Assembly (NCBI RefSeq): GCF_015354405.1
Contig: NZ_JADKYP010000050.1
Span: 1-49,100 of the forward strand
Source: Nocardia sp. BSTN01
GTDB lineage: Bacteria; Actinomycetota; Actinomycetes; Mycobacteriales; Mycobacteriaceae
DNA length: 49,100 nt
Direction of reading: 5' to 3'
This document shows positions 13,686 to 40,036 of the stretch, piece after piece (within the stretch, counting starts at the first letter, position 1; every line of letters starts with the position of its first letter). A program made the translations under genes and the position numbers. The notes beneath the pieces were generated by a model that ran no database searches, was not told the DNA's origin, and saw only the letters and a list, made by a program, of their open reading frames with translations.

Positions 13686-13886
13686 ACGGATCCGGCCTAC
13701 GCGGTGTGACGCCTGCCCGGATGGATCTCGTATCGGCCGGGTCCGCAGTAGGTGTCCCCGGCAGCTTCACACCCGGTACGGCGAACGCGACTGAGGAGAG
13801 CGGTGGCAGATGACCGAGCCCGTGATCGAACGTCGAAAAGGACCCCCACCGACCGGCCTGATCCTCGTGGACGATCGGCACGCCAC

Positions 13887-14747
13887 ATGGTGAGCGTCCG
13901 AGCCGGGCACTTCCACCCGATCTACGACCCGAGCGCCGGCGAGCCGCAGCCGTGGTACATCAACGACCACACCATCATTCGCGACGAATCCGGCCGCTGG
14001 CACCTGTTCGGCATCACCCATCCCGAACCCGCCGATCCGTTCGACGAGATCGAATTCGCCCACGCCAGCGCCGACGGCTTGCACGGCCCGTGGACCAAAC
14101 ACCCTTCCGCGCTGACCGTGGACCGCGATTACGGCGAGACGCACCTGTGGGCGCCATACGTGATCCGCGCCGACGGTCGCTATCACATGTTCTACGCGGG
14201 CGGCGGCGACGACCGCACGGCGGCGGCGATCTGCGTGGCCACCTCCGACGACCTGTTCGAGTGGACCCGCGAGCCGGCCGGGCCGGTGTTTCGCGACGGG
14301 TACGACGCCCGCGATCCCATGGTCGCGCGGATCGACGGCCGCTGGGTGATGTACTACGCCGCGACAAGCTCGCCGACCGGTGGCAACTATGTGGTCGCGT
14401 ACCGGACGAGTACCGATCTGCGCACGTGGAGTGAGCGGCAGATCGCGTTCACCGACCCGACCTCGGGCACCGAGGCCGGCAATACCGAATCGCCATTCGT
14501 CTTGTCCGACAACGGTTCCTGGTATCTGTTGATCGGTCCGCGGCCCGATTACGTCGGAACCGACGTGTTCCGCAGCGACACCCCCTACCACTTTCGGATC
14601 GACGACCGTGTCGGACACATCGCCGCCCATGCCGCAGAGCTGGTCGACGACGGCGAGCTGTGGATCACCAGTTGCGGCTGGGGGCAGGGCGGAGTGTCGC
14701 TCGCATCCCTCGAGATCGGGAGAACTGCACCGGAAACCGCGCCCTGA
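13887..14747 (+). CDS. Five-bladed beta-propeller glycosidase-like protein (GH43/GH32 clan type)
   Basis: A 286-residue cytosolic protein with repeated propeller blades: WYINDHTIIRDESGRWHLFG, LWAPYVIRADGRYHMFYAGG, YDARDPMVARIDGRWVMYY and NTESPFVLSDNGSWYLLIG. Acidic residues in NDHTI (Asp), ARDPMV (Asp) and NTESPF (Glu) sit where GH43/GH32-like enzymes carry their catalytic base, pKa modulator and acid. No signal peptide is seen, so it would act on imported oligosaccharides. GTG 13803 in the same frame has GAGGAG only 4 bp upstream and would add 28 Arg-rich residues. A 27-codon open frame from ATG 13810 ends over this start (ATGGTGA). It is the first gene of the sugar operon. Confidence 0.7.
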   Translation: MVSVRAGHFHPIYDPSAGEPQPWYINDHTIIRDESGRWHLFGITHPEPADPFDEIEFAHASADGLHGPWTKHPSALTVDRDYGETHLWAPYVIRADGRYHMFYAGGGDDRTAAAICVATSDDLFEWTREPAGPVFRDGYDARDPMVARIDGRWVMYYAATSSPTGGNYVVAYRTSTDLRTWSERQIAFTDPTSGTEAGNTESPFVLSDNGSWYLLIGPRPDYVGTDVFRSDTPYHFRIDDRVGHIAAHAAELVDDGELWITSCGWGQGGVSLASLEIGRTAPETAP

Positions 14748-14799
14748 GTGATATCTCTAGGCGAGTAGTCCGACCGTTCGTCTCTTGGAGGGATCCGGC

Positions 14800-16212
14800 G
14801 TGGCACGTATCGGTGTGATCAGCATTTCCGACGGACGCGACTATGTGCACGACGGCATAGCCGAGTTCATCCGTACCAACGAAGACCGGCTCGTCGCCGA
14901 ATTGACCTCCGCCGGACACGAGGTGATTCGCGGCTCGGCGCCGGTCAGCACCAACACCCTCGCCGTCTCGGTGGCCCGCGAAGTCGCCTCGGCCGGAGTC
15001 GATCTCACGGTGCTGCACTACGCGGTATGGGCGTTCCCGCACTTCACCATGCTCGTCCAGGGAGCCACGCCGGGAGCGCTGCTGTTGCTGTCCAATATCG
15101 ATCCGGTTCAGCCCGGAATGGTCGGGATGCTGGCGGCCGGGGGAGCACTGGATCAGATCGGCCGGACGCACACTCGGCTGTGGGGCGACCCGGCCGACCC
15201 GGACCTGATCGCGAAGATCGGTGTGCAGGCTTGCGCCGCCTCGGCGGTGTCGAGCCTGCGCGGCTCGACGTTCGGCAGGTTCGGCGGCCGGCCGATGGGG
15301 ATGAACACCGCCGTCGCGAATACCGATCAGTGGCAACGCATTTTCGGCGTCGATGTCGAGGAGATCGACCAGTGGGAGATCGTGCGCCGCGCCGAACTCG
15401 CCGACGCCGCCGAGGTTTCCAAAGCCAGGGTTTGGCTGGAGGAAACCACCGCCGGCGTGCACTACGACGGCGACAAACTCACTCCCGAGCTGCTGGAGCG
15501 CCAGATCCGCTCCTACCTGGCGGTGCGCGAGCTGATCGACGAATGGAATATCGACTTCTCCGGCATCAAGGGTCAGCCCGAACTCACCCAGTACTTCGCC
15601 ACGATGGACGTCACCGAGGCGTTCCTCAACGACCCGTACGACTGGAACGGTCCGAAACCCACCCATGTGTGCGCCACCGAGGCCGACATGGACGGCGCGC
15701 TGACCATGCAACTGCTCAAACAGATCTCGGGTACACCGGTGCTGTTCGCCGACGTCCGCCACTATCACGCCGACCGCGACATCTGGGATTTGTGCAACTC
15801 CGGCCAGCACGCCACCTGGTTCGCCGCCCGCAGTGACGATCCGGCGGAAAACCTGTCCCGGGTGCATCTGTTTCCCGAAGTGTTCTTCTTCCCCGCCGGT
15901 GGCGCGTCCGTCCATCATCTCGCCGCACCGGGGCAGATGACGCTGGGCCGGCTCACCCGCAACGACGGAAACTATCGCATGCAATTGATGCTCGGCGATT
16001 TCGAGAGCTACGACGAAGCCACCAACGACGAACTGATGCGCCAGTCGACCCGCGAATGGCCGCACGCCTTCGCGCGGCTGGACGCTCGCGCCGAGGATTT
16101 CCTGTCCCGGTTCGGTGCCAACCACATCCACGCCGTGCCCGGCGACCATCGGGCGACCGTGCGGGCCGCCTGCGATCTGCTGGGCGTCACCGTGGACGAA
16201 TTCACGCGCTGA
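14800..16212 (+). CDS. L-fucose/L-arabinose-isomerase-superfamily sugar isomerase
   Basis: A 470-residue protein starting at GTG after GGAGGGA; TTG 14785 is a weaker option. The N-terminal MARIGVISISDGRDYVHD and THTRLWGDP belong to the fucose-isomerase-like (COG2407-type) family. The metal-site acids are expected in ATEADMDGALT (Glu) and ADVRHYHADRD (Asp), with a His further on (ASVHHLAAPG). Relatives isomerise L-fucose, D-arabinose or other aldoses to ketoses. With an FGGY kinase overlapping its stop and a GH172 glycosidase downstream, D-arabinose to D-ribulose is a plausible reaction. Sulfoquinovose and deoxysugar isomerases of the same superfamily are alternatives. Confidence 0.8.
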   Translation: MARIGVISISDGRDYVHDGIAEFIRTNEDRLVAELTSAGHEVIRGSAPVSTNTLAVSVAREVASAGVDLTVLHYAVWAFPHFTMLVQGATPGALLLLSNIDPVQPGMVGMLAAGGALDQIGRTHTRLWGDPADPDLIAKIGVQACAASAVSSLRGSTFGRFGGRPMGMNTAVANTDQWQRIFGVDVEEIDQWEIVRRAELADAAEVSKARVWLEETTAGVHYDGDKLTPELLERQIRSYLAVRELIDEWNIDFSGIKGQPELTQYFATMDVTEAFLNDPYDWNGPKPTHVCATEADMDGALTMQLLKQISGTPVLFADVRHYHADRDIWDLCNSGQHATWFAARSDDPAENLSRVHLFPEVFFFPAGGASVHHLAAPGQMTLGRLTRNDGNYRMQLMLGDFESYDEATNDELMRQSTREWPHAFARLDARAEDFLSRFGANHIHAVPGDHRATVRAACDLLGVTVDEFTR

Positions 16213-17693
16213 TGTTCATCGGAATCGACATCGGCACGTCCGGTTCCAAGGGCGTGCTCACCGACGCCGACGGCACAATCCTCGCGCGGGCCGAGCGTCC
16301 GCACGAGGTGACGACGCCGCGACCGGGCTGGGTCGAGCACGACGCGGAATCCGTGTGGTGGGCGGACTTCGTCGCCATCGCCCGCGAACTGGTCGATGCC
16401 GCCGCGGGAGCGCGGCTGGACGGGCTCGGCATCAGCGGTATCGGCCCGTGCCTGCTGCCCGCCGACGCGCAGGGAATTCCGTTGCGCCCGGCGATCCTGT
16501 ACGGCGTCGACACCAGGGCGGGAATCGAAATCGCCGAGCTGACAGACGAATTGGGCGCGGCGGCGGTACTCGAACGCGCCGGGTCTCCGCTGACCAGCCA
16601 GGCCGTCGGGCCGAAACTGCGGTGGCTGGCGCGACATGAGCCGCAGGTGTACGAGCGCACCCACATGCTGCTCATGGCGAGTTCCTTTCTCGTGCACCGG
16701 CTGACCGGGCGATACGTACTCGACCACCAGTCGGCGAGCCAGTGCGTGCCCATGTACGACCTGCGCAAACGAGAATGGGCTCATGACTGGGCGGAACACT
16801 GCGCTCCGGGCCTGGCGCTACCCGAACTCGCTTGGCCCACCGAGATAGCGGGCAGGGTGAGCGCGGAAGGGGCTGCGGCGACCGGTCTTCCGGAGGGGCT
16901 GCCGGTCACCACCGGCACCGTCGACGCCTGGGCCGAGGCCGCCAGCGTCGGCGTACGCGCTCCCGGTGATGCGATGGTCATGTACGGCACCACGATGTTC
17001 CTGGTCCAGATCCTCACCGAGCCGCGCCCACATCCCGGCCTGTGGGGCACCTGCGGCGCATGGCCCGAAACCTATTCTCTCGCAGCGGGAATGGCGACAT
17101 CGGGCGCGGTCACCGATTGGCTGCGCCGCCTGGTCGGCGGAGATTTCGGTGACCTGGTCACCGACGCCGGCAAGGTTCCGGCGGGCAGCCGCGGGCTGCT
17201 GATGCTGCCCTATTTCGCCGGCGAACGAACACCGCTGTTCGATCCCGACGCGCGCGGCATGGTCGCCGGCCTCACCACGAGCCACGGCCGCGGTGAGCTG
17301 TATCGCGCCGCGCTGGAAGGAACCGCCTACGGGGTGCGACACAACCTGGAGGCCATGTCCGACGCCGGTGGCCGAGCCCGACGGCTGGTCGCGGTCGGCG
17401 GTGGCACCAAAGGCGGTCTGTGGACCCAGATCGTGTCCGACGTGACCGGTCTGCCGCAGGAGCTGCCGGCAGAGACTGTCGGGGCCTGCCTCGGTGATGC
17501 CCTGCTGGCCGCGGAAGCCGCTGGTGTCGACACGTCCCGGTGGAACCCGGTGACGTCGGTTATCGAGCCGGACTCGGAACGGCAAGCGATCTACGACCAG
17601 TACTACCGACGCTATCGCGAACTCTACGAATCGACTGCGGATATCGCGCATTTTCTCGCCGCGGAACAACATCGGACGGCGGACCATGGCTGA
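16212..17693 (+). CDS. FGGY-family carbohydrate kinase
   Basis: A 493-residue kinase whose ATG overlaps the isomerase stop (TGATG), implying coupled translation. The ATP-site phosphate loop is GIDIGTSGSKGVLTDADG at the N-terminus. The catalytic Asp is expected in TGTVDAWAEAASVG, and the C-terminal ATPase motif is VAVGGGTKGGLW. It is closer to the xylulokinase/ribulokinase-like kinases than to glycerol kinase. As the partner of the isomerase it should phosphorylate the ketose produced, for instance D-ribulose. The cluster holds a second FGGY kinase at its end, so the two presumably take different ketoses. Confidence 0.85.
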   Translation: MFIGIDIGTSGSKGVLTDADGTILARAERPHEVTTPRPGWVEHDAESVWWADFVAIARELVDAAAGARLDGLGISGIGPCLLPADAQGIPLRPAILYGVDTRAGIEIAELTDELGAAAVLERAGSPLTSQAVGPKLRWLARHEPQVYERTHMLLMASSFLVHRLTGRYVLDHQSASQCVPMYDLRKREWAHDWAEHCAPGLALPELAWPTEIAGRVSAEGAAATGLPEGLPVTTGTVDAWAEAASVGVRAPGDAMVMYGTTMFLVQILTEPRPHPGLWGTCGAWPETYSLAAGMATSGAVTDWLRRLVGGDFGDLVTDAGKVPAGSRGLLMLPYFAGERTPLFDPDARGMVAGLTTSHGRGELYRAALEGTAYGVRHNLEAMSDAGGRARRLVAVGGGTKGGLWTQIVSDVTGLPQELPAETVGACLGDALLAAEAAGVDTSRWNPVTSVIEPDSERQAIYDQYYRRYRELYESTADIAHFLAAEQHRTADHG

Positions 17694-17894
17694 ACCCTGG
17701 CGTTTCGACAGCGCGCGTACCCGCTCGATCAGCGCCGCGAAACAGTGTCCGTCGGGGCGAAGAGTGGTCGAACTCTGCCGTCTCGAAAGGTCGTGCAGTC
17801 GACCGGTCAGCACCGCCGTACGCCATCGGACGGGGGCCGACATTGTCTGAACTCTGGCGACTCGATCGGGCGCGCACCCGTTCGATCAGCCCCG
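17692..17894 (+). repeat. Three tandem diverged 78-79 bp repeats at the kinase/GH172 junction
   Basis: Units begin at the GAA codons at 17692, 17770 and 17849. Translated, they read EPWRFDSARTRSIS, ELCRLERSCSRPVS and ELWRLDRARTRSIS. Units 1 and 2 are in one frame, opened by ATG 17686, which overlaps the kinase stop (ATGGCTGA). The third unit is shifted by one base and is the true N-terminus of the GH172 protein. The stretch before units 1 and 3 (CATCGGACGG...) is also shared. The frame from ATG 17686 closes at 17848-17850. Confidence 0.75.
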
Positions 17895-18850
17895 AGAATC
17901 CGACCGGCGAGCCGGGCGCGGGCGCACGGGCGGAAACCGGCACGGGCGCGGGTGCGGCACGTGATCTCGGTGTCGGCTGGAAGGTTTCGCCGTCGATCGA
18001 TCTGGCCGCCGGGTCCACCGCGACGCTGGCCGACGTGTCCGGACCGGGAGTGATCCGGCACTTCTGGCTGACCACCGACCGCACCGTGCTGCGCCGGTTG
18101 ATCCTGAACTTCACCTGGGACGATGACTCGCAGCCGTCGATCGACGTGCCGCTGGGCGACTTCTTCTGCAACGGCTGGGAGGAACTGGCACTGGTGAGTT
18201 CGGAAATGGTGGTGGTCGCACCCGCCGGTGGCCTGAACAGCTACTGGCCCATGCCTTTTCGTGAGTGCGCCCGCGTCACCCTACATAACCCGACCGAGCG
18301 CTCGGTGCCGGTCTACTACCAACTCACCTACGACGAGACCGAGGTAGGCGAGGACGCCGGCTACTTGCATTGCCAACGCCGGCAAAGTAATCCGCTCGGA
18401 ACACCGGCAGTCCACACCATTGTCGATGATGTTCGAGGCCGCGGACGCTATGTCGGCACCTATTTGGCGATCGCACCGAATGCGCCCGGTTGGTGGGGCG
18501 AGGGCGAAATCAAGTTCCATCTCGACGGGGACGACGAGTTTCCGACGATCTGCGGCACCGGCACCGAGGACTATTTCGGCGGCGCCTGGAACTTCGACCT
18601 CGACGGCGCCTACCGCGACTATTCCAGCCCGTACCTCGGCCTGCACCAAGTACTTCCGCACGACGAGATCTACACATCACAACAACGATTCGGCATGTAT
18701 CGCTGGCATGTCCGCGACCCGATCCGCTTTCACGAGGAGTTGCGAGTCACGCTGCAAGCGCTGGGCTGGCAGGACGGCGGGCGGTATCTGCCGTTGGCCG
18801 ACGCCGATGTCGCCACCACCGCATGGTGGTACCAGGAAAGGGGACTGTAG
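17844..18850 (+). CDS. GH172 (DUF2961) glycoside hydrolase, cytosolic
   Basis: About 335 residues from TTG 17844, the only usable start near the conserved N-terminus ELWRLDRARTRSIS-PENPTGE. DUF2961 hallmarks follow: WKVSPSIDLAAG, VIRHFWLTTDR, VPLGDFFCNGWEELALV, NSYWPMPFRECARVTL, GWWGEGEIKFHLDGDDEFP, CGTGTEDYFGGAW, FGMYRWHVRDPIRF. Characterised GH172 enzymes act on difructose dianhydride and on alpha-D-arabinofuranosides, including mycobacterial D-arabinan. Candidate acids lie in GEGEIKF and GTEDYF. There is no signal peptide. Two diverged copies of its 5' end lie upstream, so initiation here probably depends on coupling or read-through from ATG 17686. Its stop abuts the next ATG. Confidence 0.85.
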
Positions 18851-19831
18851 ATGCGCGCGTTGGTGATCGAAAAGCCCGGCGAGTACTCGGTACAGACAAT
18901 TCCCGACCCGGCCCCGGGACCGGGCGAGGTCGTTGTCGAGGTTGCCGCGGTAGGGATCTGCGGCACCGATATCCACATCGTCGAAGGCGAATTTCCGCCC
19001 ACGCCGTATCCGATCGTCCCCGGTCACGAGTTCTGCGGCCAGATCGTCGAGGGCCCGAGGTCCGGCGAGAAGGTAGCCGTGGACCCGTCGCTGTTCTGCG
19101 GCGCCTGCCACTACTGCCGCATCGGTCGCGGCAACCTCTGCGAACGGTGGGGTGCGATCGGCGACACGGTGAACGGTGCGATGGCCGAATACGTCGCTGT
19201 GCCGGAGGCGAACTGCTTCACGTTGCCCGACGAGCTGCCCGCCTCGCACGGCGCGCTCGTCGAGCCGCTGTCGTGTGCCGTACACGGATTCGACGGGCTA
19301 CCAAGGACGCTGGGCTCGCACTACCTGATCTACGGCGCCGGCACGATGGGCCTGATGATGCTGCAACTCGCGGTCGCCGCGGGCGCGGCCTCGATCTCGG
19401 TGGTCGACCTCAATACCGACCGCCTGCAGGTCGCCCGCACCCTCGGTGCGGACGCGGTCGCCACGAACGCCGACGAGTTCGACCGCCCGCACGGCTGGGA
19501 AGTCGTCATCGACTGCACCGGCGCGATCCCGGCGATCGAAGACGGCCTCACCCGAGTCCGCCGCGGCGGCACCTACCAGCAGTTCGGTGTCGCCCCCGGC
19601 GACGCCACGGCCTCCTTCTCACCCTTCCGCATCTACAACGACGAAATCACCGTCGTCGGTTCGATGGCAGTGGTCCACAGCTTCGGCCGCGCCGTCGACC
19701 TCATGTGCAAGGGCGCGATAGACGCGCAAACAATGGTCACCCACACGTTTGCCCTCGACCAGTTCTCGGAAGCGCTACAGGCATTCCGTGACGGCATCGG
19801 CCGCAAGATCCAGATCGCTCCGCGCGGATAA
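18851..19831 (+). CDS. Zinc-dependent medium-chain sugar-alcohol dehydrogenase
   Basis: A 326-residue MDR-family enzyme starting immediately after the GH172 stop. The catalytic zinc ligands are CGTDIHIVE (Cys), GHEFCGQI (His, Glu) and a later VEPLSCAVHG segment. A structural-zinc-like set is present in CGACHYCRIGRGNLC. The NAD(P)-binding motif is GAGTMGLM. Relatives are sorbitol, xylitol, arabitol or threonine dehydrogenases. Beside a xylulokinase, oxidation of D-arabitol or xylitol to D-xylulose fits, but oxidation of a sugar released by the glycosidases is also possible. Confidence 0.82.
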   Translation: MRALVIEKPGEYSVQTIPDPAPGPGEVVVEVAAVGICGTDIHIVEGEFPPTPYPIVPGHEFCGQIVEGPRSGEKVAVDPSLFCGACHYCRIGRGNLCERWGAIGDTVNGAMAEYVAVPEANCFTLPDELPASHGALVEPLSCAVHGFDGLPRTLGSHYLIYGAGTMGLMMLQLAVAAGAASISVVDLNTDRLQVARTLGADAVATNADEFDRPHGWEVVIDCTGAIPAIEDGLTRVRRGGTYQQFGVAPGDATASFSPFRIYNDEITVVGSMAVVHSFGRAVDLMCKGAIDAQTMVTHTFALDQFSEALQAFRDGIGRKIQIAPRG

Positions 19832-21226
19832 ATGGCGACCGTCGCCGGAGTGGACAGCTCCACTCAATCCTGCAAGGTCGTCGTCTGCGACGCGGACACC
19901 GGTGAGGTGTTGGCTCGCGGCCGTGCCCCGCACCCCGAGGGTACCGAGGTCCCTCCCGAAGCATGGTGGACCGCATTACAGCAGGCGGGGGAGGGGTTGC
20001 TCGACAAGGTCGACGCGATATCGATCGCCGGCCAGCAGCACGGTCTGGTAGCACTCGACGACTCGAACCGGCCTGTGCGAGATGCCTTGCTGTGGAACGA
20101 CGTCCGCTCGGCCGAGGCAGCCGACGACCTTGTTGTGGAACTGGGCGGACCGCAGGCGTGGCTGGACGCCGTCGGCAGCGTCCCGGTCGCCGCGTTCACC
20201 GTGGCGAAACTGCGCTGGATGGCCGACCACGAGCCCGATCTCGCCGACCGAGTCACCGGAGTGATGCTGCCGCACGACTTCCTCACCTGGCGGTTGCGCG
20301 GCGGTGGCGACGCGGAACCCACCACCGATCGCAGCGATGCTTCGGGGACCGGGTATTGGTCCGCGGCGCAGGGACAGTACCGAGAAGACTTGCTAGCTCT
20401 TGCCTTTCGAGGCCGCCGCCCGCAGTTCCCCAAGGTACTGGCTCCGTCCGAGAGTGCCGGACGGACCGCATCGGGCGCACTCGCCGCCGCAGGCGCGGGA
20501 GACAACGCGGCAGCGGCACTCGGCCTCGGGATCGGCGACGGCGACGTGGTGATCTCCCTGGGCACCAGCGGCACCGCATTCGCACGCACCTCACAGCTGC
20601 ACACCGACCCGTTCGTCAACGGATTCGCAGACGCTACAGGACAATTCCTGCCGCTGGTGTGCACACTCAACGCCGCCCGGGTACTCGAGGCAACAGCCAC
20701 CGCCCTCGGAATCCCGCTCGCCGAACTCGATGCGCTGGCCCGCCAGGCCCCACCAGGCGCCGACGGCCTCGTCCTACTGCCATACCTGTCCGGCGAACGC
20801 ACCCCGAACCTCCCACACGCGACGGGCAGCCTGCACGGATTGCGTTTGGAGACAATGCGTCCCGCCCACCTGGCTCGCGCCGCCGTCGAAGGAATGCTCT
20901 GCAATATGGCCGACGCTCTCGACCGCCTCCGTGCGGCCGGCGCGACACCCCGGCGCGTGCTGCTGATCGGCGGCGCTTCACGTTCGGCGTTCGTCGCCCA
21001 AATCGCCGCACAGATCTTCGGGGCCGCTGTCACCGTTCCGGAGCCGGAGGAGTACGTCGCTTTGGGCGCGGCGCGACAGGCCGCGTGGGCGTTGCGCGGT
21101 GGTGCTGAACCGCCGCAGTGGACTGCTACCGGGACTGTCGAGATTGCGGCACCTGGCGACAGTGCTCTGGGGACGCGGATCCGTCAGGCCTATCGGCGGG
21201 CGCGAGAATCGTTGTACGGCAGCTGA
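19832..21226 (+). CDS. xylB: Xylulokinase
   Basis: A 464-residue FGGY kinase that begins directly after the dehydrogenase TAA. The N-terminal [20 protein letters not shown], the [13 protein letters not shown] substrate motif, the catalytic Asp in [36 protein letters not shown] and the C-terminal [14 protein letters not shown] are xylulokinase-like. It would phosphorylate D-xylulose to xylulose 5-phosphate, feeding the pentose phosphate pathway. It ends the sugar operon. Downstream genes converge on it. Confidence 0.88.
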
Positions 21227-26318: not shown

Positions 26319-27836
26319 TCAGATGCCCGGCGCTACAGGTGTCTCCTCCGGCTCCCGCGCAGCATGTCGGGGCAGGAACATAGCCGGGACGATGATCACC
26401 GCGGTGAGCCCGAACGCCACCCAGAACGCGAAGCCGAAGGAGTCGGCGAGCAACGGTCCGACCACTGGCATGAGTTGGGGCGGGACGGAGCTGATCTGAC
26501 CGGAACCGCCGCTGCCGGAAGGGATTCCGTGCTCGGTCAGCTGGCGGGAGAGGTGCTGCGTCAGCGCCGTCACCAGCAAGGCGCTGCCGAGCGACGCGCC
26601 GACCTGCTGAATGGCCGAGAGCGTGGGTGCCGCGCGTGTCACGGCGTCCTTGCCCAGTTCCGTGTAGGCAGCCGAGATGGTCGGCATCATCACCGCACCG
26701 AGGCCCATACCGCGCACGAACAGGGCCACACAGAGCCAGACGTAGGAGGTGTCGGTGCCCACGTGCGTGTACGGGAGGGTGCCGATGAGGCCGAGCACGA
26801 CGCCGACGGGTACGACGTAGCCGGCGCCGATGCGGTCGGTGAGCCGGCCACCGATCACCACCGCCACGATCGCGCCCAACCCCTGGGGTGCGAGCAGCAG
26901 GCCGGCGTCGAGCGGGCCATGTCCGCGCACGGTCTGGTAGTACAGCGGGAGCAGCAGCATGCCGCCGAACAATCCGATGGCGACGAGGAATACCGCGATG
27001 GTTCCGCTGGCGAAGAGGCGGTTGGTGAGCAGGCGGACGTCGACGATCGAGTCGGCTCCCTTGCGGAGGCTGTGCCAGGTGTAGAGGGCCAGGCCCGCGA
27101 CGCCGCCGATGAGCCAGCCGAGCACGCCCCACTCGGTGAATCCGCCGTGTGAACTGGCCTCGGAAAGGCCGTAGAGAAGGCACACGAGGCTACCGGAGAG
27201 CAGGATCAGCCCCAGCAGGTCGAGCCGGCCGTGCTCGGGCAGGGTGTCACCGTGCGGGAGCTTCCAGGCCGCGAGCGTGAGGGCGAGGGCGCCGACGGGG
27301 ACGTTGACGAGGAAGATCCAGTGCCAGCTCGTGTACTGGACCAGCAGGCCGCCGATCACCGGACCGAATACCGGTCCCAGCAGCATGGGGACACCGAGGA
27401 TGGCCATCGCCCGCCCGAGGCGTTGCGGGCCCGCGGCCCGGGTGATGATCGCCTGCCCGGCGGGCAACAGCATCCCGCCGCCGAGTCCCTGCAGGATGCG
27501 GAAGGCGATGAGGCTGTCGATCGACCAGGCGGCCGCGCACAGAGCCGAGCCCGCCACGAACAGACTCACCGCGGTGAGCCAGACCGGTCTGGGCCCGAAA
27601 CGATCCATCGCCCACCCGGTCACCGGGATGACCAGCGCCACCGCCAGCAGATAACCGGTCACCACCCACTGGGTGGTGGACAGGGTCGCGCCGAGTTCGG
27701 TGCTCAAGGAGTTCAGGGCGACGTTCACGATGGTGGTGTCGAGAACCACCATGATCATGCCGGACACGACGACGAGTCCTGTGACGATGACGCTGCGGTC
27801 GAGCTTGCCCGACTGCTGCGCGGTGGTGGATGCCAT
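26319..27836 (-). CDS. DHA2-family multidrug efflux transporter (EmrB/QacA type)
   Basis: A 505-residue major-facilitator protein with about 14 hydrophobic segments, the DHA2 hallmark. The N-terminal motif VVLDTTIVNVALNSLSTELG contains the Asp typical of this family. Motif A-like (YLLAVALVIPVTGWAMDRFG) and motif C-like (ILGVPMLLGPVFGPVIGGLL) segments are present. It would export hydrophobic drugs or cell-derived compounds by proton antiport. It is divergent from a decayed HxlR-type regulator whose start is 63 bp away. Confidence 0.9.
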   Translation of the reverse strand: MASTTAQQSGKLDRSVIVTGLVVVSGMIMVVLDTTIVNVALNSLSTELGATLSTTQWVVTGYLLAVALVIPVTGWAMDRFGPRPVWLTAVSLFVAGSALCAAAWSIDSLIAFRILQGLGGGMLLPAGQAIITRAAGPQRLGRAMAILGVPMLLGPVFGPVIGGLLVQYTSWHWIFLVNVPVGALALTLAAWKLPHGDTLPEHGRLDLLGLILLSGSLVCLLYGLSEASSHGGFTEWGVLGWLIGGVAGLALYTWHSLRKGADSIVDVRLLTNRLFASGTIAVFLVAIGLFGGMLLLPLYYQTVRGHGPLDAGLLLAPQGLGAIVAVVIGGRLTDRIGAGYVVPVGVVLGLIGTLPYTHVGTDTSYVWLCVALFVRGMGLGAVMMPTISAAYTELGKDAVTRAAPTLSAIQQVGASLGSALLVTALTQHLSRQLTEHGIPSGSGGSGQISSVPPQLMPVVGPLLADSFGFAFWVAFGLTAVIIVPAMFLPRHAAREPEETPVAPGI

Positions 27837-31367: not shown

Positions 31368-32132
31368 ATGACAATCGAATATGTCCGATACCGGATTGCC
31401 GAGCACGACGCGGCCGAATTCGAGGCCGCCTACGGTCGTGCCGCACGGTCGCTGGCGGCGTCCCCGCACTGTGTCGACTACGAGTTGTCACGGTGCGTCG
31501 ACGAACCCGAGTGCTACGTCCTGCGCATCTCCTGGACCTCTGCCGAGGACCATCTGCGGGGCTTCCGCGGCGGTAAGCATTTCGCGGCATTCTTCGCCGA
31601 GATCGGACCGTATGTGCAGCGTATCGAGGAGATGCGCCATTACGAACGCACCGCTGTCCGAGGTTCCGGATCCTCGGTGCCGAGTATGTACGACTGGCTC
31701 GGTGGTATCGAGGCGCTGGAGCGGCTCACGAAGGTCTTCTACACCCACGTACTGGCCGACGACCTGATCGGGCCGTTGTTCGCCGGGATGGATCCGGGCC
31801 ATCCGCACTATGTGGGCATGTGGCTCGCCGAGGTATTCGGTGGCCCCTCCCGCTACACCGACGAGCGCGGCGGTTACGACCACATGCTGGCGCACCATCT
31901 GGGCAAAGCCATCTCCGAGCCGCAGCGTCGGCGCTGGGTGTCGCTGCTGCTGGATGCCGCCGATGAGGCCGGCCTGCCCGGCGATCCGGAGTTCCGGGCC
32001 GCGTTCGTCGGCTACATCGAATGGGGCACCCGCATCGCGCTGGGCAACTCACAGCTCGACGCCGACCCGCCGCGGCATCTCCCGGTACCTCATTGGGGCT
32101 GGGGTGTCGCCCCGCCGTACACCCCCGCCTGA
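31368..32132 (+). CDS. ABM-domain/truncated haemoglobin fusion
   Basis: A 254-residue protein from MTIEYVRYRI; GTG 31359 adds three residues. Residues 1-95 form an antibiotic-biosynthesis-monooxygenase-like (ABM) ferredoxin fold (FEAAYGRAARSLAASPHCVD, ISWTSAEDHLRGF). Residues ~108-240 form a group II truncated haemoglobin: YDWLGGIEALERLTKVFYTH, PLFAGMDPGHPHYVGMWLAE, the proximal-His region HMLAHHLGKAISEPQRRRW, and the conserved Trp in GYIEWGTRIA. This chimera is known from Streptomyces and relatives, with a suggested role in oxygen/NO or redox chemistry on a quinone-like substrate. It is divergent from dhaKL. Confidence 0.85.
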   Translation: MTIEYVRYRIAEHDAAEFEAAYGRAARSLAASPHCVDYELSRCVDEPECYVLRISWTSAEDHLRGFRGGKHFAAFFAEIGPYVQRIEEMRHYERTAVRGSGSSVPSMYDWLGGIEALERLTKVFYTHVLADDLIGPLFAGMDPGHPHYVGMWLAEVFGGPSRYTDERGGYDHMLAHHLGKAISEPQRRRWVSLLLDAADEAGLPGDPEFRAAFVGYIEWGTRIALGNSQLDADPPRHLPVPHWGWGVAPPYTPA

Positions 32133-34740: not shown

Positions 34741-35160
34741 TCAGACGGCGACCACGGTCAGCAATGCCTCGAGCCCCTTGAAATCGTCCGGGTTGCGGGT
34801 GAACAGGGGGAGATCGTTCGCCGAAGCGATAGCCGCGATCATCAGGTCCATTCGGCGTGGCTTCGGGTTGCGTCTCGCTGCGACAACCAGTTTCGACATG
34901 GACGTGAACCGCCGGGCGGCGGTGGAGCAGAACGGCAGTGCGTCGAAAATGTGCTCGAATTCCAGCAGGCGTTCGGTGCGAATCGCCAACTCCTCCGCGG
35001 TCGCCGCCATGGCTGTGCCCAGTCCGAGTTCGGCGAGTGTGACTGTGCTGATTCGAAGCTCGATGGGTAGTGCGGCCTCATCGATCAGCGGCAGGTCGAT
35101 GCACACGCAGGTATCCAGCAGTCCGGCCTGATGGCGAAAGCTGTCGTCCGGCTCAGTCAT
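34741..35160 (-). CDS. vapC: PIN-domain toxin, VapC type
   Basis: A 139-residue PIN-domain ribonuclease. The acidic metal-site residues are in LLDTCVCIDLPL (Asp), VTLAELGLG (Glu), RRMDLMIAAIASAN (Asp) and TRNPDDFKGL (Asp), matching the standard quartet. Such toxins cleave tRNA or rRNA when freed from their antitoxin. Its ATG lies 8 bp inside the antitoxin gene, so translation is coupled. The pair is a type II toxin-antitoxin module. Confidence 0.9.
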   Translation of the reverse strand: MTEPDDSFRHQAGLLDTCVCIDLPLIDEAALPIELRISTVTLAELGLGTAMAATAEELAIRTERLLEFEHIFDALPFCSTAARRFTSMSKLVVAARRNPKPRRMDLMIAAIASANDLPLFTRNPDDFKGLEALLTVVAV

Positions 35161-35407
35161 CGAGCCGGTCTTCGCCGAATTCGGCGTCTACTTGCGCTCG
35201 TTCCGTTGCGCTGTCGGCGTAGGCGGCGAATCGAGCGAATCGTTGCTTGGCCACGGCCGCTGTGACGGTCCGGTGTGTGGTGACAGGCCGGAGTTCGCCC
35301 ACGGGCCGGCCGTTGCGGGTGATGACGAAATCGTCCCCGGCCTCCAATGCGTCCATGATCCCGGCACTACCGTTGCGCAGTTCGGCTTGGGTAATGGTCC
35401 TGGTCAT
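35153..35407 (-). CDS. vapB: Phd/YefM-type antitoxin, VapB
   Basis: An 84-residue antitoxin. MTRTITQAELRNGSAGIMDA, GDDFVITRNGRPVGELRPV are classic Phd/YefM DNA-binding N-terminus motifs. The C-terminal AAYADSATERAQVDAEFGE should wrap the PIN toxin and autorepress the operon. The frame runs on upstream to 35596 but the -10-like element lies just before the ATG at 35407, so that start is preferred and the mRNA is probably leaderless. Confidence 0.9.
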   Translation of the reverse strand: MTRTITQAELRNGSAGIMDALEAGDDFVITRNGRPVGELRPVTTHRTVTAAVAKQRFARFAAYADSATERAQVDAEFGEDRLDD

Positions 35408-36795: not shown

Positions 36796-37647
36796 TCACC
36801 GACCACCCATCCCGGACATCGCGATCCCGCGAACGAACGACTTCTGCGCGAACGCGTAGATCACCAGCATCGGCGCCACCATCAGGATGGAGGTCGCCAT
36901 GAGGATCGGCCAGTTGGTTTCGTACTGGCCCTGCAGACGCACCAAACCTAGTGTCAGCGTGGAGATCTCGTCGCGCTGGATCATCACCAAGGGCCACAGG
37001 AAATCGTTCCAGACCGTCACCCAGGTGAGTACCGCGAGCACCATCACCGCCGGTCGGGCGTGTGGCAGCAGCACCCGCCAGTAGGTCTGCCAGACCGAGC
37101 AACCGTCGAGGATGGCCGCCTCCTCCAATTCGGCCGGCAGAGTGATGAAGAACTGGCGCATCAGGTAGGTGCCGAACGCACTGCCGAACAGACCCGGCAC
37201 GATCATGGCCAAGGGACTGTCCACCCAGCCGAAGGTGCGCATGAGGATGAACTGGGGGATGACCGTGACGGTCGTCGGCACCATGAGGGTGGCGAGGTAG
37301 GCGACGAACAGGACGTCGCGACCCTTGAACGGCAAGCGAGCGAAGGCATATCCGGCCAGCGAACAGAAGAACACCTGGCCCGCCGTCACGCAGCCCGCGT
37401 AGAGGACGGTGTTGAAGAAGATCCGGCCGAACGGCATCAGGTCGAAGATGTCGCGGTAGTTCGCCCATGCAGGGTGGGCCGGGACGATGCTGGTGTCGGA
37501 GATGTTGCCCTGTTTCTTCAGCGAACTCGACAATGCCCACAGCAGCGGGAACAGTGCGCACCACGCCATCACGACGAGCGCCAGGTACAGCAGCATGCCG
37601 CGCCCGGTACGGCGGACAACGGCACGATTCGCGGTCGCTGTCGCCAC
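36796..37647 (-). CDS. ABC sugar transporter permease (MalG-like)
   Basis: A 283-residue membrane protein with six hydrophobic segments starting GTGGCGACA (MATATANRAV). The cytoplasmic EAA loop is in LEEAAILDGCSVWQTYWRVL, the contact site for the ATPase. It begins exactly where the preceding permease stops (TAG then GTG). It belongs to the CUT1 family for oligosaccharides and polyols. No ATPase gene lies in the operon, so a shared MsiK-type ATPase encoded elsewhere is likely. Confidence 0.92.
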   Translation of the reverse strand: MATATANRAVVRRTGRGMLLYLALVVMAWCALFPLLWALSSSLKKQGNISDTSIVPAHPAWANYRDIFDLMPFGRIFFNTVLYAGCVTAGQVFFCSLAGYAFARLPFKGRDVLFVAYLATLMVPTTVTVIPQFILMRTFGWVDSPLAMIVPGLFGSAFGTYLMRQFFITLPAELEEAAILDGCSVWQTYWRVLLPHARPAVMVLAVLTWVTVWNDFLWPLVMIQRDEISTLTLGLVRLQGQYETNWPILMATSILMVAPMLVIYAFAQKSFVRGIAMSGMGGR

Positions 37648-38565
37648 CTAGGCCTCGCTCTCGTAGGCATTGCCGCGGGTGAGTCGCAATTGCAGCAGCG
37701 TCAGCACCAGCAGGATCGCGAAGATCACCCAGGCGAGTGCGCAGGCATAACCGATGTCGTCGAAGGAGAAGGCGTTCTGGTACAGCATGATTCCGAGCAC
37801 GTAGGTGCCGGTTTCGGGACCGCCCTTGCCGCCCGTGAGGACGTAGGCCTGATCGAACACCTGGAACGAGTTGATGAACGTGATGACGAAGGAGAACACC
37901 AGCGCGGGCCGGATCAGCGGCACGGTGATCGAGCCGAACCTGCGCAGCGCTGCGGCGCCGTCGATGCGGGCGGCCTCGTAGACGTCGGCCGGGATGCCCT
38001 GCATGGCGGCGAGCAGGACGATGGTGGCGAAGGGGACGCTTTTCCACACACTGACCAGGCACAGCGAGAACATCGACCAACGGGGGTCGGTGAGCCACGG
38101 GACCGGTCCGATGCCGATCCAGCCGAGGGCCGTGTTGAGCACGCCGTAATCGGTGCTGAAGGTGAGCCGCCACACCACCGCCATCGCCACGGTCGAGGCA
38201 ACCAGCGGCATGAACATGATGCTGCGAAAGATGCCGATACCCTTCAGTTTCCGGTTCAAGGCCGCCGCGACGACGAGACCGATGACGATCGTCGGGATCA
38301 GCGTGCCGGCGGTGAAGATCACCGTATTGCGCAGGGCCACCCAGAACAGCGGGTCGTGCGCGAAGAGCCGGCGGAAATTGTTGAAGCCGATGAACGTCGG
38401 CGAACTGAACAGATCCCATCGGTGCAGGCTCAAATACAGCGTGAACACCAACGGGAACGCCATGAACACCGCCACCGCGATCAGGTTGGGCGCGATGAAC
38501 ATTCGGCCGGCGGCAGCCTTACGCCGGCGCAGCGCGGAACGTCGTGGTCTGCCGAGTGTCGTCAT
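37648..38565 (-). CDS. ABC sugar transporter permease (MalF-like)
   Basis: A 305-residue permease with a basic cytosolic N-terminus (RRSALRRRKAAAGRMFIAPN), six membrane segments, and the EAA-type loop YEAARIDGAAALRRFGSITV. It pairs with the MalG-like permease and the downstream-oriented binding protein, forming a CUT1 importer. Its start follows the second copy of the duplicated spacer at 38570-38683. Confidence 0.92.
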   Translation of the reverse strand: MTTLGRPRRSALRRRKAAAGRMFIAPNLIAVAVFMAFPLVFTLYLSLHRWDLFSSPTFIGFNNFRRLFAHDPLFWVALRNTVIFTAGTLIPTIVIGLVVAAALNRKLKGIGIFRSIMFMPLVASTVAMAVVWRLTFSTDYGVLNTALGWIGIGPVPWLTDPRWSMFSLCLVSVWKSVPFATIVLLAAMQGIPADVYEAARIDGAAALRRFGSITVPLIRPALVFSFVITFINSFQVFDQAYVLTGGKGGPETGTYVLGIMLYQNAFSFDDIGYACALAWVIFAILLVLTLLQLRLTRGNAYESEA

Positions 38566-38569
38566 AGCG

Positions 38570-38683
38570 GCACCCGGTCGACACAGCGAGCCGCTGCGCG
38601 ATTGTCGCTCACTGTGCCCGGTGATATGCGGGACACCCGCACCCGGTCGGCACAGCGAGCCGCTGCGCGATTGTCGCTCACTG
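38570..38683 (-). repeat. Duplicated 69-bp-period spacer with hairpins inside the ABC operon
   Basis: A 45-bp sequence occurs twice, at 38570-38614 and 38639-38683, with one mismatch (A/G). Each copy contains AGCGA...TCGCT arms that can fold back on the RNA. On the minus strand the first copy starts with the stop codon of the binding-protein gene and the second ends just before the permease ATG. It probably reduces transcription or mRNA 5' stability so that binding protein is made in excess. Confidence 0.75.
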
Positions 38684-40036
38684 CGCCTCCAAGAGATCGT
38701 TGATCTGTCCGGCGAGGCCGTGCTTGAACCATTCCGCGGAGGCGGCGCCGCGGAATACGTGGTCGTATCCCTGTTCGATGACCGCGTCGACGCGGGGCCA
38801 CGCGGGCGTGACCGGCAGGTTGTTGGCGTGATCGCCGCCGTGGAACACCTCGAGGTTGTGCACTCTTTCGTGCGCCTGTGCGAACCCGTCGGAGGCGAGG
38901 GCCGATTTCAACGCGGGGACGAACAGTCCCGACTTCGCGATGACCGCCTGACCGACGGGCCCGGTGGCGAATTTGACGAATTCCCAGGCCTGTTCCTTGC
39001 GCGGGCTGTCGGCCGCGATGGACAGGCCGGTGGTGCCGATATCGGAGCGAGCCGCGGTACCGCGCGGGCCGACAGGCAGCACTGTGACGTCGAAGTCGAG
39101 GTCTTGCCGACCGGTGTAGGCGCTGTACATCCAATGCCCGGACAATGCCATCGCGGCCTTGCCCTGGGCGAACATATCCGACGACGAAAGTGATTGCTGG
39201 AATTCGATTTTCGGCATGACCCGGTGCCGGGTGGACAGGTCGGTGTAGAACTGGACGCCCTCGATGAAGGCGTCGTGGTCGATATTGGTGCGGGTCGGGT
39301 CGATGGATGGGGTGAACCATTCCACGCCGTTGTTCATGCCGAAACAACTGGCGGAGTAGTAGACGGTCCAGGGATCCACGAATCCCCATTGGGTGACGTC
39401 GCCGGAGCTGTCGCGTTTGGTCAGCGCCTGTGCGGCGTCGAGGAATTCATCGAAAGTCCAGGCGTCCTCCCAGCGTGCGGGCGGCGGTGGGAGCTTGGCG
39501 TCGGCGAAGAGTTTCTTGTTGTAGTACAGGAAGATCCCGGCCCACTGCTCGGGCAGTGCGTGCTGAGCGTTCTTGTAGCGGAAGGTGTTGTACAGCGCCG
39601 TCGAGCTGTCCTTCTTCAGTTCGGCCGCGTACGCCGGGTCCTTGTCGAGAATCGTGTCGAGGTTTTCGAAGATGCCGCGTTCGGCGAGGAAGGAATAGGA
39701 CAGGTCCCACGACATCAGCACGTCCGGACACTTGCCGCCCGCGCAGTAGGTGAGGATCTGGGTCTGCGGATCGGGGCCGGACATCTGAGTCCGGATTTTG
39801 ATGTCCGGATGCAGTTTGCGGAACTCGTCGATGATCGTCAGCCGGACCTTCGCCTCATCGGGTTTGGCCTGGAAAAAGAAGGTGAGCGCATCGTCGTCGT
39901 GGTCACCGCAGCCGGTCATCGAGGAGGCGGCCGCTGCCGCCCCGGCCGCCGCCGCACCGCGCAGGAGTGTGCGCCGGTCGAACCTCCGAGACCATGCCAC
40001 CCGTGCCCCCGTTCGGCTACCGCAAGCGAACTTCAT
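38678..40036 (-). CDS. ABC transporter sugar-binding lipoprotein
   Basis: A 452-residue extracellular solute-binding protein. The N-terminus carries a twin-arginine-like SRRFDRRTLLRGAAAAG and a lipobox-like SSMTGC near residue 43, so it is probably an exported lipoprotein. Family motifs include DEFRKLHPDIKIRTQMSG, FAQGKAAMALSGHWMYS and GTTGLSIAADSPRKEQAWEF. It is of the CUT1/extracellular family 1 type. GTG 40000, which starts VAWSRRF, is a plausible alternative start. The sugar is not predictable. It might supply the catabolic operon at 13.8 kb, but they are 16 kb apart. Confidence 0.9.
   Translation of the reverse strand: MKFACGSRTGARVAWSRRFDRRTLLRGAAAAGAAAAASSMTGCGDHDDDALTFFFQAKPDEAKVRLTIIDEFRKLHPDIKIRTQMSGPDPQTQILTYCAGGKCPDVLMSWDLSYSFLAERGIFENLDTILDKDPAYAAELKKDSSTALYNTFRYKNAQHALPEQWAGIFLYYNKKLFADAKLPPPPARWEDAWTFDEFLDAAQALTKRDSSGDVTQWGFVDPWTVYYSASCFGMNNGVEWFTPSIDPTRTNIDHDAFIEGVQFYTDLSTRHRVMPKIEFQQSLSSSDMFAQGKAAMALSGHWMYSAYTGRQDLDFDVTVLPVGPRGTAARSDIGTTGLSIAADSPRKEQAWEFVKFATGPVGQAVIAKSGLFVPALKSALASDGFAQAHERVHNLEVFHGGDHANNLPVTPAWPRVDAVIEQGYDHVFRGAASAEWFKHGLAGQINDLLEAQ

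What the first reader, a model, noticed from the sequence alone, without database searches (positions are those of the whole stretch)
13803..21226. Candidate intracellular D-arabinan / pentose-oligosaccharide salvage operon with a GH172 enzyme
Six genes lie in one orientation, and from the isomerase on they overlap or abut, except where the repeats lie before GH172: propeller glycosidase, fucose/arabinose-type isomerase, FGGY kinase, GH172 (DUF2961), zinc polyol dehydrogenase, xylulokinase. Established knowledge: some GH172 enzymes cleave alpha-D-arabinofuranosides of mycobacterial arabinan, and fucose-isomerase-like enzymes often accept D-arabinose. Inference: a mycolate actinomycete could recycle its own arabinogalactan. 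Neither glycosidase has a signal peptide, so oligosaccharides would be imported first. As far as I know, this gene combination has not been described as a pathway.
Basis: partly seen in the sequence, partly recalled or inferred. Interest (0 to 1): 0.78.

Follow-up and report, generated by a model that had tools for sequence, protein, structure and literature searches.

The report
Nocardia cell-wall D-arabinan salvage operon
Many Nocardia soil bacteria appear to carry one operon that breaks fragments of a cell-wall sugar polymer (D-arabinan) down to single sugars and burns them; most steps resemble a pathway already proposed elsewhere, but one of the two sugar-cutting enzymes is of an untested type.

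Summary
The six-gene operon is real (13887-21226, + strand; Nocardia). GH172 belongs with proven exo-alpha-D-arabinofuranosidases: best solved match 8ic8, E 1.7e-119, with the catalytic Glu pair and the Asn that excludes fructofuranosides; a Nocardia brasiliensis GH172 has been assayed on arabinogalactan in print. The endo-D-arabinanase family GH183 is in 149 of 149 Nocardia genomes sampled. FucI is in 66, always with GH172; Paenibacillus has a FucI-FGGY-GH172-GH183 cluster. D-arabinan salvage is thus well supported. The pathway (extracellular GH183, import, intracellular GH172 plus GH116, isomerase, kinase) was already proposed for Microbacterium in 2023, so the claim that it is undescribed fails. 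What differs: GH116, the known beta-D-arabinofuranosidase, was found in 0 of 149 genomes; its place may be taken by an uncharacterised five-bladed propeller enzyme that co-occurs with GH172 (82 genomes with both, 5 GH172 only, 4 propeller only, 58 neither). I propose that it removes beta-D-Araf caps (about 0.4). Importer, source of substrate (own or foreign walls) and the dehydrogenase/xylulokinase branch stay open. The repeats before GH172 are copies of the kinase/GH172 junction; they form a mini-ORF that keeps stop-start overlap with GH172.

The parts
13887..14747 (+). five-bladed propeller glycoside hydrolase (GH43/GH32-like, 286 aa); proposed exo-beta-D-arabinofuranosidase
   Evidence: Pfam; 13 orthologues (N26-D27, R142-D143-P144, E201); AlphaFold pLDDT 87.2, pTM 0.88; fold matches; co-occurrence
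14800..16212 (+). L-fucose/D-arabinose isomerase-type enzyme (470 aa)
   Evidence: PF07881, PF07882, PF02952; PDB L-fucose isomerase E 1.1e-17 and D-arabinose isomerase 5e-17; 66 of 66 FucI genomes carry GH172
16212..17693 (+). FGGY pentulokinase, presumably D-ribulokinase
   Evidence: below the xylulokinase equivalog cut-off (317.1 of 380.25 bits)
17678..17898 (+). three degenerate tandem copies (64 nt in register, spacing 78 and 79) of the kinase-end/GH172-start junction
   Evidence: relatives without the copies
17686..17850 (+). 54-codon mini-ORF; ATG overlaps the kinase stop, TGA overlaps the GH172 start TTG 17843
   Evidence: sequence; mini-ORFs with the same overlaps in 6 of 13 genomes of the clade, this one included
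17843..18850 (+). GH172 (DUF2961), proposed exo-alpha-D-arabinofuranosidase, 335 aa; E220, E242, N250
18851..19831 (+). zinc-dependent polyol/sugar dehydrogenase, substrate unknown
   Evidence: in 47 of 87 GH172 genomes at E <= 1e-80
19832..21226 (+). xylulokinase (XylB)
   Evidence: 413.8 bits, above the 380.25 cut-off of TIGR01312
36796..40036 (-). oligosaccharide-type ABC importer (two permeases, binding protein), only a candidate for uptake
   Evidence: Pfam; binding protein in 87 of 87 GH172 genomes but also in 35 of 62 without (E <= 1e-60)

Best explanation
An intracellular D-arabinan salvage operon. GH183 endo-D-arabinanases encoded elsewhere in the genome cut arabinogalactan or lipoarabinomannan outside the cell (inferred from published relatives); oligosaccharides are imported by a transporter not yet identified; in the cytoplasm the propeller enzyme removes terminal beta-D-arabinofuranose caps (inferred, about 0.4) and GH172 peels off alpha-D-arabinofuranose (shown in print for relatives); the FucI-type isomerase turns D-arabinose into D-ribulose and the FGGY kinase gives D-ribulose 5-phosphate (inferred). 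The dehydrogenase and xylulokinase may serve a second entry through a pentitol to D-xylulose 5-phosphate (inferred, weakest step). The confidence is for D-arabinan salvage as such.
For: GH172: 8ic8 exo-alpha-D-arabinofuranosidase E 1.7e-119 over 328 residues; E220 and E242 match acid/base and nucleophile of alphaFFase1 (E270, E291) and N250 matches Asn253 of ExoMA1, which blocks fructofuranosides. NocGH172 of N. brasiliensis is active on pNP-alpha-D-Araf and arabinogalactan. G072, whose single contig of 9,436,348 bases I recall as the N. brasiliensis HUJEG-1 length, has one GH172, 73% identical, in an operon with propeller, FGGY kinase and XylB but no FucI or dehydrogenase. GH183: 149 of 149 Nocardia, 5 in G000. 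FucI nested in GH172: 66 both, 0 FucI alone, 21 GH172 alone, 62 neither. P. arenilitoris L132: LacI-FucI-FGGY-GH172-GH183 in a row. In 7 genomes a 72% identical FucI lies on another contig than GH172; in 5 of 5 fetched it is followed by ABC importer genes (Pfam of one, L199). Both strong GH172 of the same-order genome G039 adjoin oligosaccharide-type ABC importers, one also a monosaccharide-type one. [quoted passage not shown] gadei on D-arabinan. Propeller: 82/5/4/58 with GH172, Fisher p 2.6e-30 (kinship not corrected), 54 upstream on the same strand, 24 downstream on the opposite strand, 4 on other contigs; GH116 in 0 of 149; triad-like D27, D143, E201.
Against: No importer and no GH183 among the six operon genes. 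21 of 87 GH172 genomes lack this FucI (E <= 1e-30) and 13 lack both FucI and the dehydrogenase, so their route for D-arabinose is unknown; the presumed N. brasiliensis is one of the 13. 5 GH172 genomes lack the propeller, 4 propeller genomes lack GH172, and 4 of 88 propeller matches hold an in-frame stop. The fold does not single out beta-D-Araf: GH32, GH159 and GH43 all match, and by sequence the best solved match is a 'beta-galactosidase', then GH43 arabinanases. The three full-length propeller relatives outside Nocardia lie in genomes without GH183 or GH116.
Confidence: 0.78

Rival explanations
1. Same salvage operon, but the propeller is a beta-D-galactofuranosidase (or another enzyme that does not cut beta-D-Araf) working on the galactan or another part of the wall.
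Confidence: 0.25
2. The operon serves scavenging of D-arabinan from other mycolate bacteria rather than recycling of the cell's own wall (compatible with the enzymology of the best explanation).
For: GH183 is in 149 of 149 Nocardia but GH172 in only 87, so wall turnover does not need the operon; close GH172 relatives lie in Paenibacillus, Cohnella and others, which have no D-arabinan of their own (recalled).
Against: The host genus has D-arabinan walls (PMC10509167); nothing here separates the two sources.
Confidence: 0.45
3. A pentitol/free pentose operon (D-arabinitol, xylitol, D-arabinose) in which the glycosidases are minor.
For: Dehydrogenase plus xylulokinase above cut-off; FucI with ABC importer genes of monosaccharide type in other genomes.
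Against: Dehydrogenase missing in 40 of 87 GH172 genomes, while GH172 and propeller stay together.
Confidence: 0.1
4. A fructofuranoside operon (GH172 as difructose anhydride or alpha-fructofuranoside enzyme, propeller as GH32-like fructosidase).
For: alphaFFase1 is GH172 and the best fold rows of the propeller are GH32.
Against: N250 in the place of Gly299; ExoMA1 match far above alphaFFase1 (402 against 126 bits); fructose needs no aldose isomerase.
Confidence: 0.04
5. Isomerase and operon for sulfoquinovose.
For: Weak SftI match, 37.1 bits.
Against: Cut-off 700; FucI models score higher (92.4 and 83.8 bits); GH172 evidence points to D-arabinan.
Confidence: 0.02

Closest known systems
D-arabinan-degradation gene cluster (PUL) of Microbacterium arabinogalactanolyticum (Shimokawa et al. 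2023, PMC10509167; abstract, Results sections on exo-enzymes and their structures, Discussion and term passages seen)
   Same: Intracellular GH172, putative isomerase and kinase to D-ribulose 5-phosphate, GH183 in the genome, import of oligosaccharides assumed
   Different: GH183 and ABC importer are not in the Nocardia operon; GH116 not found in 149 genomes; propeller enzyme, dehydrogenase and xylulokinase added; the host itself has D-arabinan
NocGH172 (O3I_017420) of Nocardia brasiliensis (Al-Jourani et al. 2023, PMC10115798; abstract, Results part 1 of 3, Discussion and term passages seen)
   Same: GH172 of the same genus, active on pNP-alpha-D-Araf, arabinogalactan and LAM; very likely the orthologue (73% identical gene in G072)
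   Different: Its operon and propeller neighbour are not mentioned in the parts that I saw
Dysgonomonas gadei PUL42 (PMC10115798)
   Same: Fucose isomerase, GH172 and DUF4185 in one locus, proteins abundant during growth on D-arabinan
   Different: Bacteroidota; three GH172; a putative GH116 (PMC10509167 Discussion)
GH43, GH32 and GH159 five-bladed propeller hydrolases
   Same: Fold and an Asp-Asp-Glu triad
   Different: 11-21% identity in the structural alignments listed; substrate untested

Membership tests
GH172 exo-alpha-D-arabinofuranosidase | DUF2961 domain over the gathering score | tested here: met
   287.6 bits, cut-off 27
GH172 exo-alpha-D-arabinofuranosidase | catalytic Glu pair of alphaFFase1 (E270, E291) | tested here: met
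   E220 in GWWGEGE and E242 in GTGTEDYF
GH172 exo-alpha-D-arabinofuranosidase | Asn in place of Gly299 (arabino- over fructo-specific) | tested here: met
   N250; N in 83 of 91 motif matches in the 101 loci scanned, 4 D, 4 C
GH172 exo-alpha-D-arabinofuranosidase | hydrolysis of alpha-D-arabinofuranosides | not testable with these tools
   published for relatives only
Microbacterium-type D-arabinan PUL | isomerase plus kinase with GH172 | tested here: met
Microbacterium-type D-arabinan PUL | GH183 in the genome | tested here: met
   5 matches in G000; 149 of 149 genomes
Microbacterium-type D-arabinan PUL | GH183 in the cluster | tested here: not met
   none among the six operon proteins
Microbacterium-type D-arabinan PUL | GH116 exo-beta-D-arabinofuranosidase | tested here: not met
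   PF04685 in 0 of 149. The same model finds a gene 4.6 kb from a GH183 in G039, but ExoMA2 itself was not scored, so a diverged GH116 could be missed
Microbacterium-type D-arabinan PUL | ABC importer in the cluster | tested here: not met
   among the 30 window translations scanned with Pfam the nearest ABC importer is 15.6 kb away; an MFS transporter lies at 26319-27836, 5.1 kb away
L-fucose/D-arabinose isomerase family | three FucI domains over gathering scores | tested here: met
   147, 67.6 and 64.2 bits; far below the L-fucose isomerase equivalog cut-offs (92.4 of 775)
L-fucose/D-arabinose isomerase family | D-arabinose as substrate | not testable with these tools
   only context
GH43 or GH32 (propeller) | full-length match to one family and not the other | tested here: inconclusive
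   55.1 (GH32) and 54.0 bits (GH43), partial matches; many folds tied
GH43 or GH32 (propeller) | Asp-Asp-Glu catalytic triad | tested here: met
   D143 and E201 invariant, D27 nearly so; by my reading of the alignment E201 falls on the Glu201 mutated in AbnB (titles, alignment); not checked in 3D

The most novel reading that the evidence does not exclude
The propeller founds a new glycoside hydrolase family: an exo-beta-D-arabinofuranosidase that replaces GH116 in a salvage pathway of D-arabinan-walled bacteria, used inside the cell in Nocardia and, as export-type versions with lectin-like repeats beside peptidoglycan hydrolases in other actinomycetes, against the walls of mycolate bacteria.
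Probability: 0.3. Interest if true: 0.72.

Novelty: new variant of a known kind. Interest (0 to 1): 0.52.

Why it matters
How mycolate bacteria reuse D-arabinose from their walls is, as far as I know, an open question. GH183 is in every Nocardia sampled, yet only 87 of 149 have GH172 and its partners, which makes wall turnover and salvage separable by genetics. The propeller is a concrete, untested candidate for the beta-D-arabinofuranosidase step; such an enzyme would also be a tool for reading the caps of arabinogalactan and lipoarabinomannan.

Tried and rejected
Sulfoquinovose and fructan readings: rejected as above. The window's ABC importer (36796-40036) as dedicated importer: not specific; its binding protein is in 122 of 149 genomes and only 24% identical, over 254 positions, to the GH172-linked one of G039, though it is present in 87 of 87 GH172 genomes. 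A simple swap between FucI and dehydrogenase routes: rejected; of 87 GH172 genomes 39 have both, 27 FucI only, 8 dehydrogenase only, 13 neither. Propeller with GH172 outside Nocardia: none among the 80 named loci, which reach at most 8 kb each side (12 strong matches, all in loci titled Nocardia, plus fragments in L072 and L076). Divergent, longer GH172 with a propeller beside it: one genome, G092, of the 9 that list a divergent GH172 (31-34% identity); no second propeller match lies beside the other 8. Folds not listed are not thereby excluded. Searches behind statements on print: (open-access PMC only). Kinship was not corrected for in the Fisher tests. My gene calls are from a home-made codon-usage finder, not a standard program; in L198 it over-extended FucI.
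Full report
OBSERVATION. The window holds six genes on the + strand: propeller glycosidase 13887-14747, FucI-type isomerase 14800-16212, FGGY kinase 16212-17693, GH172 17843-18850, zinc dehydrogenase 18851-19831, XylB 19832-21226. The two kinases differ: the second passes the xylulokinase equivalog cut-off (413.8 of 380.25 bits), the first does not (317.1). The closest named GH172 relatives are in Nocardia veterana (95%) and N. mikamii (93%), so the window is taken as Nocardia.

GH172. Best solved match is 8ic8, exo-alpha-D-arabinofuranosidase (402 bits, 328 residues). Acid/base and nucleophile Glu of alphaFFase1 (passages of PMC8605356) correspond to E220 and E242, and Asn253 of ExoMA1, which excludes fructofuranosides (section of PMC10509167), to N250. 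Al-Jourani et al. (PMC10115798; abstract, Results part 1 of 3, Discussion and term passages seen) assayed NocGH172 of N. brasiliensis: active on pNP-alpha-D-Araf, arabinogalactan and LAM. G072 has one contig of 9,436,348 bases, which I recall as N. brasiliensis HUJEG-1. Its single GH172 is 73% identical and weighs 37,973 Da; the paper's trimer mass gives 40,169 Da per subunit, presumably with a tag. It lies in an operon with propeller, FGGY kinase, a 157-residue gene and XylB, but without FucI and dehydrogenase. If the identification holds, the assayed enzyme comes from this operon type, while I saw no test of its propeller neighbour.

GENUS SURVEY. The same 149 Nocardia genomes, drawn evenly from a larger group, were searched each time. 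GH183: 149. GH116 by PF04685: 0 (the control rang in 3 of 14 known genomes). GH172: 89 matched, 87 after dropping G116 (fragments) and G149 (divergent only). Propeller: 88 matched, 86 after dropping fragments in G019 and G097. FucI at E <= 1e-30: 66, of which those of G063 and G096 are in pieces. Dehydrogenase at E <= 1e-80: 49. GH172 and propeller: 82 both, 5 GH172 only (G019, G024, G097, G151, G166), 4 propeller only (G078, G117, G124, G136), 58 neither; without dropping any, 84, 5, 4 and 56. Of the 82, 78 have both on one contig, 77 of them within 15 kb; 54 with the propeller upstream on the same strand, 24 downstream on the opposite strand. So they stay neighbours through rearrangement. 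FucI: 66 of 66 with GH172; 21 GH172 genomes without it. Seven genomes (G012, G022, G060, G092, G093, G106, G160) carry a 72% identical FucI on another contig than GH172 (most are drafts). In 5 of 5 fetched it is followed by the same three genes, and in 4 of 5 it faces a 335-aa gene; Pfam of L199 makes these an ABC ATPase, a BPD_transp_2 permease, a Peripla_BP_4 binding protein and a LacI regulator. Dehydrogenase: 47 of 87 GH172 genomes and 2 others. 4 of 88 propeller matches hold an in-frame stop (G080, G110, G158, G168). Fisher p-values (2.6e-30; 4.5e-24) ignore kinship.

OUTSIDE NOCARDIA. In Paenibacillus arenilitoris (L132) LacI, FucI, FGGY kinase, GH172 and GH183 follow one another, which ties isomerase and kinase to D-arabinan independently; that FucI is of the long kind (597 aa) and only 89 bits to the Nocardia profile. 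In G039 (same order) one GH172 lies between an oligosaccharide-type and a monosaccharide-type ABC importer and another beside an oligosaccharide-type one. The propeller profile matches in 90 of 394 genomes of the class, but only three outside Nocardia are strong and full-length (410, 320 and 316 bits; next 53). All three (G522, G312, G524) have an export-like N-terminus and C-terminal repeats. Of the neighbourhoods of G522 and G312, proteins with M23, lysozyme-like SLT and, below cut-off, NlpC/P60 domains carry like repeats; these reach the tectonin or FG-GAP cut-offs in those neighbours but not in the propellers. G524 was judged by sequence likeness only. This points to bacterial wall glycan as substrate. 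These three genomes have no GH183 and no GH116 match. In Nocardia G092 a second propeller (58%) lies directly beside a divergent, export-type GH172.

KNOWN OR NEW. Shimokawa et al. describe the route extracellular GH183, import, intracellular GH172 and GH116, isomerase, kinase, D-ribulose 5-phosphate. The Nocardia operon works like it but fails three features of that cluster (GH116, GH183 and importer in the cluster). Searches in the open library listed, as far as titles and abstract starts show, no paper on this operon or on a propeller beta-D-arabinofuranosidase; subscription papers were not searchable.

JUNCTION. In 13 genomes of the closest clade the kinase/GH172 border was compared. Six (G002, G035, G080, G102, G103, G158) have GH172 starting at an ATGGCTGA that overlaps the kinase stop. 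Six (G000, G010, G061, G126, G127, G157) have an insertion of 67 to 328 bases; in all six a mini-ORF of 24 to 111 codons starts at the kinase stop, and a GH172-frame start codon lies 5 bases before its stop. By eye most of the peptides read as GH172 N-terminus followed by kinase C-terminus; G157 also holds unlike sequence. G147 has about 1 kb between the two genes; the script misplaced its kinase stop, so it is not counted. The reading is retained translational coupling; the six are related, so this is suggestive only.

Noticed in passing
window 17686-17850; L031, L187, L191, L192, L194: Mini-ORFs made by duplication of an operon junction, open in the 6 genomes with an insertion and keeping the stop-start overlap with GH172.
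   Followed up: partly
L036 9483-9986 and like genes in 8 of 22 loci: A thioredoxin-fold gene (PF00085, L036 member scanned) sits between FGGY kinase and GH172 in many Nocardia, in L036 overlapping both; role unknown.
   Followed up: no
L036 10984-11478 and like genes in 7 of 22 loci: A 164-residue gene without Pfam match lies on the opposite strand after GH172, where most of these loci lack the dehydrogenase.
   Followed up: no
L170 6738-11833, L171 8690-13728, L169 8572-11762: Export-type lytic cassettes: M23, SLT or NlpC/P60-like proteins and the propeller carry like C-terminal repeats.
   Followed up: partly
L132 9102-15988: Paenibacillus arenilitoris LacI-FucI-FGGY-GH172-GH183 cluster.
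   Followed up: yes
L072 13372-13995, L076 6318-6956: Fragments of propeller (and of FucI in L072) near GH172 in N. acidivorans and N. uniformis.
   Followed up: no
window 26319-27836: MFS transporter 5.1 kb after the operon on the other strand (PF07690; weak Sugar_tr match above cut-off); similar genes lie near the operon in G002 and G035. Not tested as importer.
   Followed up: no
window 31368-32132: One protein with an antibiotic biosynthesis monooxygenase domain followed by a bacterial-like globin domain.
   Followed up: no
window 34741-35407: Two small overlapping genes that look like a PIN-type toxin and its antitoxin (by eye only).
   Followed up: no
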